Positions 3,275-43,189 of a stretch of DNA of 64,000 bases are shown here, in pieces. The notes under the pieces are model-generated. The model made no database searches. It saw nothing but the letters and a program-made list of their open reading frames with translations, and was not told the DNA's origin. The DNA lies in assembly GCF_900115675.1 (NCBI RefSeq), contig NZ_FOXI01000005.1:62001-126000 (forward strand), given 5' to 3'. Every line of letters starts with the position of its first letter. Position 1 is the first letter of the stretch. The position numbers and the translations under genes were made by a program. The DNA comes from Halolamina pelagica (lineage in GTDB: Archaea > Halobacteriota > Halobacteria > Halobacteriales > Haloferacaceae).

Positions 3275-3389
3275 GGGTGGCGTTGGTCACGGGGTGACAA
3301 AACGGCAGGGGCCGGCCGCCGTCACGGCAACCGCCGACGCTACCGCTACTCGGTGTGATAAACGCAGAAGTCCGCAGCGAAGAACCGAC

Positions 3390-3584
3390 TTACAGGCGGG
3401 TCAGGTTCGTCGCGCGGGGGCCCTTGTCGGCCTGTTCAATGTCAAACTCAACTTCTTGGCCTTCCTCGAGGTCAGGGCCGCCCACGTCTTCCATGTGGAA
3501 GAAGACGTCTTCGTCCGCGTCCTCAGTCTCGATGAAACCGTAACCGCCCGTGTCGTTGAAGAAATCAACCGTTCCAGTCGCCAT
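3390..3584 (-). CDS. Cold-shock domain protein (CspA family), copy 1
   Basis: 64 residues forming one OB-fold cold-shock domain. RNP-1 appears as GGYGFIET and RNP-2 as DVFFHMEDV, with the usual end GPRATNL. CSD proteins bind single-stranded RNA or DNA and melt mRNA structure. It is very acidic. The paralogue at 11811-12005 differs at only about ten positions. Both copies share a promoter-like block 30-46 nt upstream of the ATG and the same GCAATGGC start context, so they are probably expressed in a similar way. Confidence 0.93.
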   Translation of the reverse strand: MATGTVDFFNDTGGYGFIETEDADEDVFFHMEDVGGPDLEEGQEVEFDIEQADKGPRATNLTRL

Positions 3585-3606
3585 TGCAACCGTAGCAACG
3601 TCGGCC

Positions 3607-3625
3607 GCCGGGATAACCTTTTCGA
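3607..3625 (-). promoter_or_regulatory. Putative promoter of cold-shock gene copy 1
   Basis: On the minus strand the block reads CTCGAAAAGGTTATCCC. It lies about 28-45 nt before the ATG at 3584. An equivalent block sits at the identical distance from the second cold-shock gene. AAAAGGTTATCC is a plausible BRE/TATA region, giving a leader of a few nucleotides. Confidence 0.5.
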
Positions 3626-3711
3626 GAGAGCGACCCGCGGATCGCCGGTTCGCTCGCGGAACCCGTCGTCTGACAAACGCTTAAGTCCGGCCGCTCGCAA
3701 GCGCCACCGAG

Positions 3712-4098
3712 ATGGGCACGAAGAGCAAGACGATCTCGTTCCGCGTCGACGAGGACGCCTTCGAGACGCTGCGGGAGATCGCCGAGGAGCGGGAACTCTC
3801 GCTGTCGGCGGTGTTCCGCGACTACGTCGACACCCTCGTGGCCCACGACGGCCAGGTGGATCTCGTCCCCGCGGACAAGGGGCCCGAGGAGGGGGAGGGG
3901 TTCCCGCCGACGGTGGAGGTGCCGAAGAGCTTCATCCGCGAACACGAGCGCCTGGAGCTCGAGGCCGACCACCTGCGAGAGCAGTTGGAGGAGCACAAAC
4001 GCTACATCGACTACCTGCGCGAGCAGGCCGACGAGGAGGAGGAGGTCGTCAAGCTCGAGGAGCTCGACGGCGACGAGAACACCTACCAGATCGGGTAG
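3712..4098 (+). CDS. Ribbon-helix-helix protein with C-terminal coiled coil
   Basis: 128 residues. The N-terminal segment (residues 4-45) KTISFRVDEDAFETLREIAE is a classic RHH/CopG-type beta strand followed by two helices, predicted to dimerise and bind DNA. After a linker with GEGFPPTVEVP (about residues 58-70), residues 72-115 form a charged heptad-rich helix (EHERLELEADHLREQLEEHK), a likely coiled coil. It is convergent with the 4099-4554 gene, their stop codons abutting. It is probably a small transcriptional regulator; the target is unknown. No antitoxin-toxin partner is seen next to it. Confidence 0.75.
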   Translation: MGTKSKTISFRVDEDAFETLREIAEERELSLSAVFRDYVDTLVAHDGQVDLVPADKGPEEGEGFPPTVEVPKSFIREHERLELEADHLREQLEEHKRYIDYLREQADEEEEVVKLEELDGDENTYQIG

Positions 4099-4554
4099 CT
4101 ACCCGGACAGTTCCCGCTTGGCCTCCCGAGCGCGCCGCGCCGCTTCCTGATCCCCCTCCACTTCTGCCAGCGACTCGACGGCCTCCAGCCGCCGGATCGC
4201 GCTGTCGAGGAAGGAGAGCACGTCCCCCGAGTACGCGTAGAGCATGTACTCCGCGGACATCGTGTCGACGATGGCGTCGGGGCCCAGCCCCTGTGCGCGG
4301 AGTTCGAGGAGGTAGGTGATGAACTTCTCCTCGGGGTGGCCGCAGTAGGGGTTGTTGTCGCAGTCACAGTCGAGGAAGTCCTCCGCGAAGTCGAGCACCT
4401 TCTCGCGGGTCGCCTCGTCGAGTTTCTCCATGCCGTCACCGGTGAACAGCAGGTCCAGCGTCGCGCCCTTGAACGCGCCCTTGGGGATCGAGCGCTCCAG
4501 CTGGGAGGCGATCTGCCGGTGGTTCTTGACGTAGATCTTGTCGGTGATGGCCAC
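4099..4554 (-). CDS. Conserved haloarchaeal protein with Cys/His cluster, function unknown
   Basis: 151 residues, acidic, mostly helical. A compact cysteine cluster CDCDNNPYCGH at about residues 63-73 could bind a metal. The C-terminal part (YSGDVLSFLDSAIRRLEAVESL) is predicted helical and contains a hydrophobic repeat. No enzymatic motif was recognised. The start at 4554 (MAITDKIYVKNHRQIASQLE) is supported by the absence of coding character upstream and by the tRNA promoter region that follows. I do not recognise a named function; in related genomes such proteins carry only DUF names. Confidence 0.7.
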   Translation of the reverse strand: MAITDKIYVKNHRQIASQLERSIPKGAFKGATLDLLFTGDGMEKLDEATREKVLDFAEDFLDCDCDNNPYCGHPEEKFITYLLELRAQGLGPDAIVDTMSAEYMLYAYSGDVLSFLDSAIRRLEAVESLAEVEGDQEAARRAREAKRELSG

Positions 4555-4628
4555 TACCGACGGCTACGGCGTTGGTCGGCAAAAGCTCCCCGCTCCTCTG
4601 CGTCGACGTAGCACGGGACCGGTGATGT

Positions 4629-4645
4629 CGTAACGTATTTCCCTG
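4629..4645 (+). promoter_or_regulatory. Putative promoter of tRNA-His
   Basis: AT-rich box CGTAACGTATTTCC lies about 25-40 nt upstream of the tRNA 5' end in an otherwise GC-rich spacer. Spacing fits an archaeal TATA/BRE element. Confidence 0.45.
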
Positions 4646-4667
4646 AAACCGTGGTAGGAGTCGGTGT

Positions 4668-4739
4668 GTCCGGGCTGGGGTAGTGGTATCCTTCAGCCTT
4701 GTGGGGGCTGAGACGCGGGTTCAATTCCCGCGCCCGGAC
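4668..4739 (+). tRNA. tRNA-His (GUG anticodon)
   Basis: A full cloverleaf can be folded by eye. The acceptor TCCGGGC pairs with GCCCGGA, and the anticodon stem CAGCC pairs with GGCTG around the loop TTGTGGG, giving anticodon GTG. The T arm is GCGGG/CCCGC with loop TTCAATT. The extra 5' G at 4668 opposite C4739 is the G-1:C73 pair that identifies histidine tRNA, here encoded in the DNA. No intron. The T loop has A at position 57. A near-identical copy of the 3' 24 bases lies 120 bp downstream. Confidence 0.95.
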
Positions 4740-4740
4740 C

Positions 4741-4985
4741 TCGTTGTCTCCGAGCAACTACGCGAGGAGACACGAGTCCATCGGTAAGGGATTGGACCCT
4801 GCCAGCCGTGCGCAGCGCAGCGAGCACGTCTGGCTCCGGTTCGATTCCCGCGCCCGGACCTTCTGGCTGCGAACGAAGGTGAACAGCCGAAGGGAATTGA
4901 ATCAGGGAGTGGAGCGAACGGAGTGAGCGGAACGACCGTGGCTCGCTTCTCCGGCGACAACCGGCGCCACACGCGCCGTCGACGC
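4741..4985. other. Intergenic region with tRNA-His 3'-end copy and hairpins
   Basis: There is no gene between tRNA-His and the protease gene. The segment holds a 7-bp hairpin (TGTCTCC at 4745-4751 with GGAGACA at 4766-4772). A second stem-loop GCCAG...CTGGC (about 4801-4834) contains the inner pair GTGC/GCAC. After it come a duplicate of the tRNA 3' end (4838-4861) and the motif GCGAACGGAGTGAGCGG (4914-4930). The same arrangement of tRNA-end copy, hairpin and CGAACGGAGTGAG motif occurs near tRNA-Ala at 43.2 kb. It looks like a scar of tRNA-targeted integration. Confidence 0.6.
4838..4861 (+). repeat. Duplicate of tRNA-His 3' end (att-like)
   Basis: These 24 bases match 4718-4741 (T loop through discriminator and one base beyond) with one mismatch (A4723 versus G4843). 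The copy stands 120 bp downstream of the tRNA. A direct repeat of a tRNA 3' end is what tyrosine-recombinase integration leaves. No integrase gene is present, and only about 100 bp lie between the copies. Confidence 0.7.
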
Positions 4986-6167
4986 CTACCGCCCGAACGG
5001 CGACAGGTTCGGCCCCAGCGACTCGCCGGAGGCGGCGCCGCTCTGCTGGATGATGTCGAACGCCGTCATCAGGTCCGTCCGGGAGACGATGCCGCAGAGC
5101 TCGCCGTCGGCGTCGACGACGGGGAGTCGCCCGACGTTGTTCTGTTGCATCGTCTGGAACGCGTCCATCGCGTCGGTTTCGGGCGTGACGGTGTAGACGT
5201 CCGTCGTCATCACGTCGTCGACGCGCATCGCGTCGCGCTCGACGTCGTCGACGGACTGGGCGTCGCCGAGTGTCACCATCCCCACCAGTTCGCCGCGGTC
5301 GACGACCGGGTAGCCCGTGTGGCGCTCGCGGAACATCCGCTGGATCAGGTCGGCGACGCTGTCCTCGGGAGCGACGGTGTGGAGGCCGTCGCCCGTCATC
5401 ACGTCCGCGACCGTGACGCCACGGAACGCCGCCTTCAGCACGGTCTGCTGGGCCTCCCCGGCGGCGCCCATGTAGATGAAGAACGCCAGCGCGAGCAGGT
5501 AGAGGTTCAGCCCGGTAAAGAGCGCGAACAGCGCCAGTAGCAGCGCGAAGCCCTTCCCCACCTCGGCGGCGAGCTGGGTCGCGCGGGCGTGCGTCCGGGT
5601 GCGGGCAAGCAGCGCGCGCAGCACGCGCCCGCCGTCCATCGGGAACCCCGGCAGCATGTTGAACGCCGCGAGCACGACGTTCGCGAGCATCAGGTAGCCG
5701 AGGACGAACGTGATCACTGGCTGGCCGCCGCCGGCCAGTAGCGTGAAGCCGGCGTAGGAGAGGGCCCCCAGCGCGACGCTGACGATGGGGCCGGCGATGG
5801 CGACCTGCAGTTCGATCTTCCAGTCCTCGGGCATCTCGGTGAACTGGGCGACGCCGCCGAGCAGCCAGAGCGTGATCGAGTCGATCTCGTAGCCGTAGTA
5901 CATCGCGACCACGGAGTGGCCGAGTTCGTGGAGGAGCACGCAGGTGAACAGGCCGACGGCGGCGACGGCGCCCAACACGAACGGGGTGGAGCCGCCGGTC
6001 AACGCGGCCGCCTCGATCCCGGCGCCGAAGGCGGGGTTGAGCACCTGATCGACGAGCGTCCCGACGTCGCTGCCGATCAGGTACGCCAGCAGCGGCAGGA
6101 TCAGCAGGAACGTGACGTTGAGCTTGATCGGGATCCCGAAGATGCTCCCTAACCGGATTCCTCGCAT
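4986..6167 (-). CDS. Site-2 protease family (M50) zinc metalloprotease with two CBS domains
   Basis: 393 residues. The membrane domain carries the zinc-binding HELGH at residues 80-84 and the third-ligand motif LPGFPMDGG (Asp178), the S2P/M50 active site buried in membrane helices. Residues from about 245 to 370 form a CBS pair: VADVMTGDG...GYPVVDRGELVGMVTLGD and VDDVMTTDV...GRLPVVDADGELCGIVSRTDL. S2P-CBS proteins cut membrane-spanning substrates and are thought to be gated by nucleotides bound to the CBS pair. It is divergent from the cupin gene (79 bp). The substrate is unknown. The stop at 4986 lies just past the tRNA-His scar. Confidence 0.9.
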   Translation of the reverse strand: MRGIRLGSIFGIPIKLNVTFLLILPLLAYLIGSDVGTLVDQVLNPAFGAGIEAAALTGGSTPFVLGAVAAVGLFTCVLLHELGHSVVAMYYGYEIDSITLWLLGGVAQFTEMPEDWKIELQVAIAGPIVSVALGALSYAGFTLLAGGGQPVITFVLGYLMLANVVLAAFNMLPGFPMDGGRVLRALLARTRTHARATQLAAEVGKGFALLLALFALFTGLNLYLLALAFFIYMGAAGEAQQTVLKAAFRGVTVADVMTGDGLHTVAPEDSVADLIQRMFRERHTGYPVVDRGELVGMVTLGDAQSVDDVERDAMRVDDVMTTDVYTVTPETDAMDAFQTMQQNNVGRLPVVDADGELCGIVSRTDLMTAFDIIQQSGAASGESLGPNLSPFGR

Positions 6168-43153: not shown

Positions 43154-43189
43154 GTGGACTCGCTGCGAGTGGGACTAAAGCGAGTCCAC
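43154..43189. repeat. Hairpin made of tRNA-Ala 3'-end copies
   Basis: GTGGACTCGC (43154-43163) and its inverse GCGAGTCCAC (43180-43189) form a 10-bp perfect stem with a 16-base loop. GTGGACTCGCTG also matches, as a direct 12-base repeat, the 3' end of tRNA-Ala at 43217-43228. It lies beside the motif ACGAACGGAGTGAGTG (43196-43211), which also occurs near tRNA-His. Confidence 0.6.

What the first reader, a model, noticed from the sequence alone, without database searches (positions are those of the whole stretch)
4668..4930. tRNA-His 3'-end duplicate with hairpins: scar of tRNA-targeted integration
Seen: 24 bases of the tRNA 3' end recur 120 bp downstream with one mismatch, and two stem-loops and GCGAACGGAGTGAGCGG lie in or beside the interval. 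Known: tyrosine-type integrases use tRNA 3' ends as att sites and leave such duplicates. The interval is far too short for a full element, so this looks like the remains after loss of the cargo, or a small non-autonomous element.
Basis: partly seen in the sequence, partly recalled or inferred. Interest (0 to 1): 0.6.

Follow-up and report, generated by a model that had tools for sequence, protein, structure and literature searches.

The report
Hairpin arrays copying haloarchaeal tRNA tails
The duplicated end of this tRNA gene belongs to an apparently undescribed family of ~100-120 bp hairpin units that sit just behind many different tRNA genes across salt-loving archaea, each unit carrying a forward and a backward copy of the very tRNA it sits beside, which suggests tiny mobile elements that use tRNA genes as landing sites.

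Summary
In detail: tRNA-His positions 52-73 (window 4718-4739) recur at 4838-4859 with one mismatch, separated by hairpins. It is not a lone scar. The interval is one unit of a repeated anatomy: tRNA, spacer hairpin X, short inverted copy of the T-loop, core hairpin Y, direct copy of tRNA positions 52-73. A second, truncated unit follows (4860-4941). The Y core occurs in 260 of 391 Halobacteria genomes and 73 of 86 genera. Of 100 cores examined, 94 lie downstream of a tRNA on its strand, 2 are downstream but reversed, 4 have tRNA-like arms but no tRNA found nearby. The arms match the local tRNA, and the direct copy begins sharply at tRNA position 52 in 114 units. Y and arm stems covary. Halolamina species differ by exactly one unit at some tRNAs. 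Integrative elements sit between some tRNAs and their arrays, so the arrays appear separate from them. "Loss of cargo" is not supported; "small non-autonomous element" fits better. Best reading: tiny palindromic, tRNA-targeted mobile units, possibly moved as single-stranded hairpins by tyrosine recombinases (inferred, not shown). Structured RNA and template switching remain rivals. No published description was found in the searched library.

The parts
4669..4740 (+). tRNA-His(gtg), the anchor of the array; positions 52-73 are at 4718-4739
   Evidence: ARAGORN, Rfam RF00005 52 bits, coordinates
4740..4776 (+). spacer hairpin X1 (TCTCC..GGAGA stem)
   Evidence: fold; near-identical in the G006 genome
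4788..4798 (-). inverted copy of the tRNA T-loop region (GGGATTGGACC), preceded by a weak inverted copy of the acceptor end (4777-4787)
   Evidence: sequence; as a class, inverted arms match the local tRNA, permutation 0/20000
4799..4837 (+). core hairpin Y1 (CTGCCAG..CGTGC-loop-GCACG..CTGGCTCC)
   Evidence: fold; class-wide relatives; covariation
4838..4859 (+). direct copy of tRNA-His positions 52-73 (21/22)
4860..4892 (+). spacer hairpin X2 (CTTCTGGCTG..CAGCCGAAG)
   Evidence: fold; the same spacer follows tRNA-His directly in G003 and G004
4892..4903 (-). inverted T-loop copy of the second unit (GGGAATTGAATC)
4904..4941 (+). second core Y2, containing the GCGAACGGAGTGAGCGG motif; its 3' direct copy (GGTTCAATTCCCGCG) is missing here but present in relatives
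   Evidence: comparison with L021, L023, L025
43154..43189 (-). a similar short unit behind tRNA-Ala(cgc) in the same window: inverted end 43179-43189, direct copy of the tRNA end 43154-43164
   Evidence: sequence; self-specific match

Best explanation
The interval is one unit of a family of tiny palindromic, non-autonomous insertion units that target the 3' end of tRNA genes in Halobacteria. SHOWN by sequence: (1) the unit anatomy X - inverted T-loop - Y hairpin - direct copy of tRNA 52-73; (2) placement behind tRNAs of many kinds, on the tRNA strand; (3) arms that match the local tRNA while the same Y type recurs at different tRNAs; (4) conserved, covarying hairpins; (5) presence or absence of whole units between related species. 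INFERRED: the unit enters at the junction of T-stem and T-loop (position 52/53) and leaves the tRNA intact because a copy of positions 52-73 is on each side. The inverted-Y-direct part, folded as a single strand, re-creates a double-stranded copy of the tRNA T-arm/acceptor site, so a tRNA-targeting tyrosine recombinase supplied in trans could join the folded hairpin to the tRNA gene, much as an integron attC joins attI. Units are lost, and tandem copies made, by homologous recombination between the 22-bp direct copies.
For: Class-wide core: 260/391 genomes, 73/86 genera, none for the reversed pattern. Of 100 cores, 94 are <900 nt downstream of a tRNA on its strand, 2 downstream but reversed, and 4 lack a nearby tRNA but have tRNA-like arms. 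Named genomes: 84 of 85 matching stretches are from records named as haloarchaea; 68 of 84 cores are <600 nt behind a tRNA, 8 at contig edges, 8 displaced. Local matching: direct arm score 19.6 vs 10.2 with other isoacceptors, inverted arm 11.1 vs 8.3, both 0/20000 permutations. Sharp left boundary in 114 units: identity 0.17 just before position 52, 0.91 at 52, 0.99 at 53. Same Y type at different tRNAs in Halolamina with local arms, e.g. CCCAGAGGACGAGCGCAGCGAGTCCTCGC behind Val and Asp. Covariation: 31 double-changed cells vs 10.0 in shuffles, score 0.245 vs 0.108, 0/500, slid versions far lower. Halolamina census: 10/39, 19/38 and 15/41 tRNAs carry a copy, 0.35, 2.65 and 1.82 expected. One-unit difference at tRNA-Thr(tgt) between G004 and G005 and at tRNA-His. 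The T-loop is a known attachment region of tyrosine integrases (PMC8371274); the genome has 16 PF00589 matches.
Against: No mobilising enzyme is tied to the units. No integron-type integrase exceeds its cut-off in 7 Halolamina genomes. Presence/absence can be explained by recombination between direct repeats without transposition. Y flanks are more alike at the same isoacceptor in different genera (0.68 vs 0.48), which suits long vertical persistence. A plain target duplication does not explain why the inverted arm matches the local tRNA. The right boundary at position 73 may only reflect that the tRNA is conserved and its trailer is not.
Confidence: 0.5

Rival explanations
1. Structured RNA: the arrays are 3' trailers of tRNA transcripts whose hairpins act in RNA (termination, 3' processing, or a small RNA with an anti-T-loop segment), and are inherited mainly vertically.
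For: Strong covariation. Wobble pairs G.T outnumber A.C 75 to 33 on the tRNA-sense strand. Almost all cores share the tRNA's strand. Y flanks are isoacceptor-specific across genera, e.g. CAGGGAGG/CGACCGT at tRNA-Arg(cct).
Against: Most tRNAs of a genome lack units, and related species differ in which tRNAs have them, so no general need. No Rfam family other than tRNA reaches its cut-off. The direct copy lacks the 5' T-stem and 5' acceptor strands, so it should not form an RNase Z substrate by itself. The cells counted for wobble are not independent, and single-stranded DNA would give the same strand bias.
Confidence: 0.2
2. Replication slippage: repeated template switching at the T-arm palindrome produces alternating direct and inverted copies of the tRNA end, kept perfect by quasi-palindrome correction; no mobile element exists.
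For: Alternating direct-inverted-direct order with hairpin loops. Local matching of both arms is expected if both are copied from the adjacent tRNA. Two cores are reversed.
Against: Local copying does not explain a conserved 24-nt core and X loops shared between different tRNAs and across 73 genera.
Confidence: 0.15
3. Scar of a classical integrative element (provirus or plasmid) that lost its cargo.
For: The direct copy of the tRNA 3' end looks like an att duplication. Elements do integrate at these tRNAs: a G004 array lies about 34 kb from its tRNA-Ala, and an own-genome Thr-type array has a PF00589 gene about 0.55 kb away.
Against: Elements are found between tRNA and array: provirus L154 ends in a longer duplication reaching the anticodon arm, followed by a complete unit in the flank. 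The same hairpin core at many tRNA types across the class is not expected from independent scars. Of the 11 viral-contig pattern hits, one (L154) is a genuine unit.
Confidence: 0.07

Closest known systems
Small mobile repeats SMR-A of Haloquadratum walsbyi (HqIRS42, HqIRS43, HqIRS55; PMC3119063)
   Same: Haloarchaeal, about 110 bp, no transposase, prominent inverted repeats, insert into palindromes, way of mobilisation unknown
   Different: SMR-A insert near the ends of IS605-type elements and PATEs, are described as highly conserved in sequence, and make no target duplication; these units sit at tRNA genes, carry tRNA-matched arms and a 22-nt duplicate. Sequences were not compared.
Tyrosine-integrase att duplications at tRNA genes (archaeal integrases, PMC8371274)
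   Same: Duplicate of the tRNA 3' part; T-loop and 3' end are known attachment regions
   Different: No integrase or cargo in the unit; added inverted copy and conserved hairpin; many tRNA kinds share one core family; tandem arrays
Integron attC sites and cassette arrays (archaeal integrons, PMC9668308)
   Same: Topology: fixed site (tRNA in place of attI), then repeats of spacer plus palindromic hairpin with inverted and direct arms; stems vary with compensation
   Different: No integron integrase over the cut-off; spacers are hairpins of tens of bases, not gene cassettes (one doubtful exception); the paper's main text has no hit for Halobacteria or tRNA
MITEs and PATEs of haloarchaea (PMC3119063)
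   Same: Short, non-coding, palindromic, presumably moved in trans
   Different: Not dispersed: cores are at tRNA genes; arms follow the host tRNA rather than a fixed terminal repeat

Membership tests
Integron | integron integrase (IntI) in the genome | tested here: not met
   TIGR02249: 0 of 7 Halolamina genomes over the curated cut-off; weak partial hits only
Integron | array of palindromic recombination sites that fold as single-strand hairpins | tested here: inconclusive
   Conserved covarying hairpins exist; no recombination activity known, and the attC model itself was not run
Integron | gene cassettes between sites | tested here: not met
   Among the cores, L239 was the only case recognised with genes between tRNA and unit and no other tRNA-end copy between
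Scar or remnant of a tRNA-integrated element | direct duplication of the tRNA 3' part | tested here: met
Scar or remnant of a tRNA-integrated element | integrase or other cargo genes, or remnants, between the copies in relatives | tested here: not met
   At tRNA-His in 7 Halolamina genomes only units or decayed spacer were seen; elements elsewhere lie between tRNA and array
SMR / MITE-type small mobile repeat | short, no coding capacity, inverted repeats | tested here: met
   unit about 100-120 bp, palindromic
SMR / MITE-type small mobile repeat | filled and empty sites in related genomes | tested here: inconclusive
   One-unit differences at His and Thr(tgt), but recombination between direct copies would give the same picture
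SMR / MITE-type small mobile repeat | sequence relation to SMR-A or to terminal repeats of a known transposon | not tested
   No reference sequences of SMR-A at hand
Known RNA family (Rfam 15) | match over gathering score other than tRNA | tested here: not met

The most novel reading that the evidence does not exclude
A haloarchaeal integron-like system without classical integrons: each tRNA gene serves as a fixed insertion site, and minimal hairpin cassettes with tRNA-matched arms are joined to it as folded single strands by tRNA-targeting tyrosine recombinases, occasionally with cargo genes (L239 carries what reads as a nucleotidyltransferase/HEPN-like gene pair between tRNA-Ala and the hairpin).
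Probability: 0.15. Interest if true: 0.88.

Novelty: new variant of a known kind. Interest (0 to 1): 0.62.

Why it matters
A feature of at least 73 haloarchaeal genera that rewrites the DNA behind many tRNA genes has, as far as the searched library shows, not been described. The arms follow the host tRNA while the core stays conserved, a combination for which no known mobile element or RNA family was found here to account. It bears on how small elements choose tRNA genes, on how archaeal integration sites evolve, and on annotation, since partial tRNA copies behind tRNA genes are easily read as provirus scars. It is directly testable in Haloferax-type laboratory strains.

Tried and rejected
Rfam: nothing plausible beyond the tRNA. 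Viral contigs: 11 pattern hits, one (L154) a genuine unit, in the flank of a provirus. Upstream flanks of tRNAs: no self-copies (p = 0.39). RNA-primed (mature tRNA) origin: considered and set aside because no CCA was noticed between copies in the units read; this was by eye, not counted. Inverted copy of the acceptor end: not tRNA-specific (p = 0.11), so the inverted arm is essentially T-loop plus T-stem. Integron membership: no integrase over the cut-off. K-turn reading of the tandem G.A hairpins: set aside by inspection, no three-base bulge. Literature: 10 searches (one further call was malformed); no paper on such arrays found.

Full report
OBSERVATION. The repeat is as described: 4718-4741 and 4838-4861, 23/24 identical, 120 bp apart, the first inside tRNA-His. 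The second copy matches tRNA positions 52-73 at 21/22, against at most 17/22 in 2000 shuffles of the flank. The stretch between the tRNA and the end of the second copy folds unusually well (z = -5.3).

ANATOMY. Reading the interval with its relatives gives: tRNA; spacer hairpin X1 (4740-4776); inverted T-loop copy (4788-4798); core hairpin Y1 (4799-4837); direct copy of 52-73 (4838-4859); then a second unit X2 (4860-4892), inverted copy (4892-4903), Y2 (4904-4941).

RELATIVES. In seven genomes the first unit is present in G000 and G006, with a related one in G002; G003, G004 and G005 have a single unit directly behind tRNA-His, and G001 only a decayed remnant (sequence reading; G004). At tRNA-Thr(tgt), G004 has one more unit than G005 directly behind the tRNA, and the sequence then continues identically for about 30 bases.

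GENOME-WIDE. In the window's genome, tRNA 3' ends match their own downstream 450 nt better than other tRNAs do (mean 11.3 vs 8.4, permutation 0/20000); the inverted match is weaker (p = 0.0019) and there is nothing upstream. With a threshold of 17/22 for positions 52-73 within 500 nt, 10 of 39, 19 of 38 and 15 of 41 tRNA kinds in G000, G004 and G005 carry a copy, against 0.35, 2.65 and 1.82 expected from other tRNAs' ends.

CLASS-WIDE. The core pattern GCGCGCAGCG-N(0,20)-GCGAGCACGTCY occurs in 260 of 391 Halobacteria genomes, 73 of 86 genera, and never in the reversed control. A stricter version hit 85 stretches in one genome per species of bacteria and archaea, 84 from records named as haloarchaea; the other is a MAG labelled Bacteroidetes. 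Of 100 cores in the loci fetched, 94 are within 900 nt downstream of a tRNA on its strand, 2 are downstream but reversed, and 4 have no tRNA found nearby but tRNA-like arms. These 100 were taken from the places listed, so they are a sample, not a random draw. In the named set, 68 of 84 cores are near a tRNA on its strand, 8 are at contig edges and 8 are displaced; the displaced ones carry tRNA-Ala-type ends by sequence reading.

LOCAL MATCHING AND BOUNDARIES. Direct arms match the local tRNA (19.6 vs 10.2), as do inverted arms (11.1 vs 8.3), both 0/20000; the acceptor part of the inverted arm does not (p = 0.11). In 114 units the direct copy starts abruptly: identity 0.17 just before position 52, 0.91 at 52, 0.99 at 53, and falls from 0.78 at 73 to 0.46 at 74. 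Alignment was anchored on the first 14 bases from G53, so values inside that span are favoured; the left edge is not. The fall at 74 could come from tRNA conservation alone. The inverted profile used a best fit over 11 bases and its extent should be read with care.

STRUCTURE. Stem pairs outside the invariant core change in step: in 18 units, 31 double-changed cells against 10.0 in shuffles, covariation score 0.245 against 0.108, 0/500; slid versions reach at most 13 cells and 0.078. The 18 rows were chosen by hand for a 24-nt core and diverse stems, which favours seeing variation; the 90-unit tally shows the same pattern. G.T pairs exceed A.C pairs 75 to 33 on the tRNA-sense strand (p = 6.6e-5 if cells were independent, which they are not).

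SPREAD OR INHERITANCE. The same Y type appears at different tRNAs in Halolamina with locally matching arms. Y flanks are also more alike at the same isoacceptor in different genera (0.68 vs 0.48, 0/2000) and somewhat more alike within a genome (0.60). Both long persistence at a tRNA and movement between tRNAs, or tRNA-specific re-insertion, are therefore plausible.

RELATION TO LARGE ELEMENTS. In G004 an array with tRNA-Ala ends lies at C3:270491, and the tRNA-Ala on the same strand at C3:304306, about 34 kb away, with no tRNA detected in the part of the gap that was read. Provirus contig L154 ends in a longer tRNA-Gly-like stretch reaching the anticodon arm, followed by a complete unit. So large integrative elements insert between tRNA and array; the arrays appear to be separate from them. 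In L239 a 1.8-kb stretch with two open frames, which read to me as a nucleotidyltransferase/HEPN-like pair (not tested against a family library), lies between tRNA-Ala and a unit; this is the only gene-bearing case recognised.

MECHANISM. I favour small non-autonomous units that enter at the T-stem/T-loop junction. The folded inverted-Y-direct hairpin would mimic the tRNA-gene site, which would explain why the arms match the local tRNA; a tyrosine recombinase in trans is the natural candidate, since the T-loop is a known attachment region (PMC8371274) and the genome has 16 such genes. None of this has been shown biochemically. The RNA and template-switching rivals are given with their weights.

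KNOWN RELATIVES. SMR-A repeats of Haloquadratum (about 110 bp, targeting palindromes, mobilisation enigmatic; PMC3119063) are the nearest description found. Integrons in archaea (PMC9668308) offer a similar topology, but the integrase criterion failed here. No paper describing tRNA-tail arrays was found in 10 literature searches; subscription journals are mostly absent from that library.

Noticed in passing
L239 (Halorubrum alkaliphilum), reverse strand about 3289-5133: A 1.8-kb stretch with two open frames that read like a nucleotidyltransferase/HEPN-like toxin-antitoxin pair lies between tRNA-Ala(ggc) and an inverted-Y-direct unit: the only gene-bearing spacer recognised.
   Followed up: partly
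L021 (G006 tRNA-His) and units behind G004 Leu(taa) and the G005 tRNA that ARAGORN calls Stop(tta): A similar roughly 50-base insert (GGCGGGACC..GGTCCCGCTGGCAGCCG..CGGCGACGAAG) sits inside the Y loop in three different units, looking like a second small repeat nested in the first.
   Followed up: no
L087 (G004 tRNA-Gly(ccc)) compared with L049 (G000): In G004 the tRNA ends ..CGGCATCCGCA while the copy downstream reads ..CGGACGGCGC, the end of the G000 tRNA: the array seems to keep a fossil of an earlier tRNA allele.
   Followed up: no
G000:C31:13423 (L010): A Thr-type array away from any tRNA within 300 nt, with a PF00589 integrase gene about 0.55 kb away, probably displaced by an integrative element.
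   Followed up: partly
G004:C3:270491-304377: About 34 kb separates tRNA-Ala(ggc) from an array with tRNA-Ala ends in Halolamina salifodinae; displaced Ala-type arrays recur in several haloarchaea.
   Followed up: partly
genome-wide, 11 of 16 CGAACGNAGTGAG sites: The tandem G.A hairpin motif also occurs away from tRNAs, in contexts not explained here.
   Followed up: no
L245, contig PXTT01000074.1: A MAG labelled Bacteroidetes (QS_9_68_14) carries the core behind a tRNA; its long open frames look mixed, so mis-binning or a chimera is possible.
   Followed up: partly
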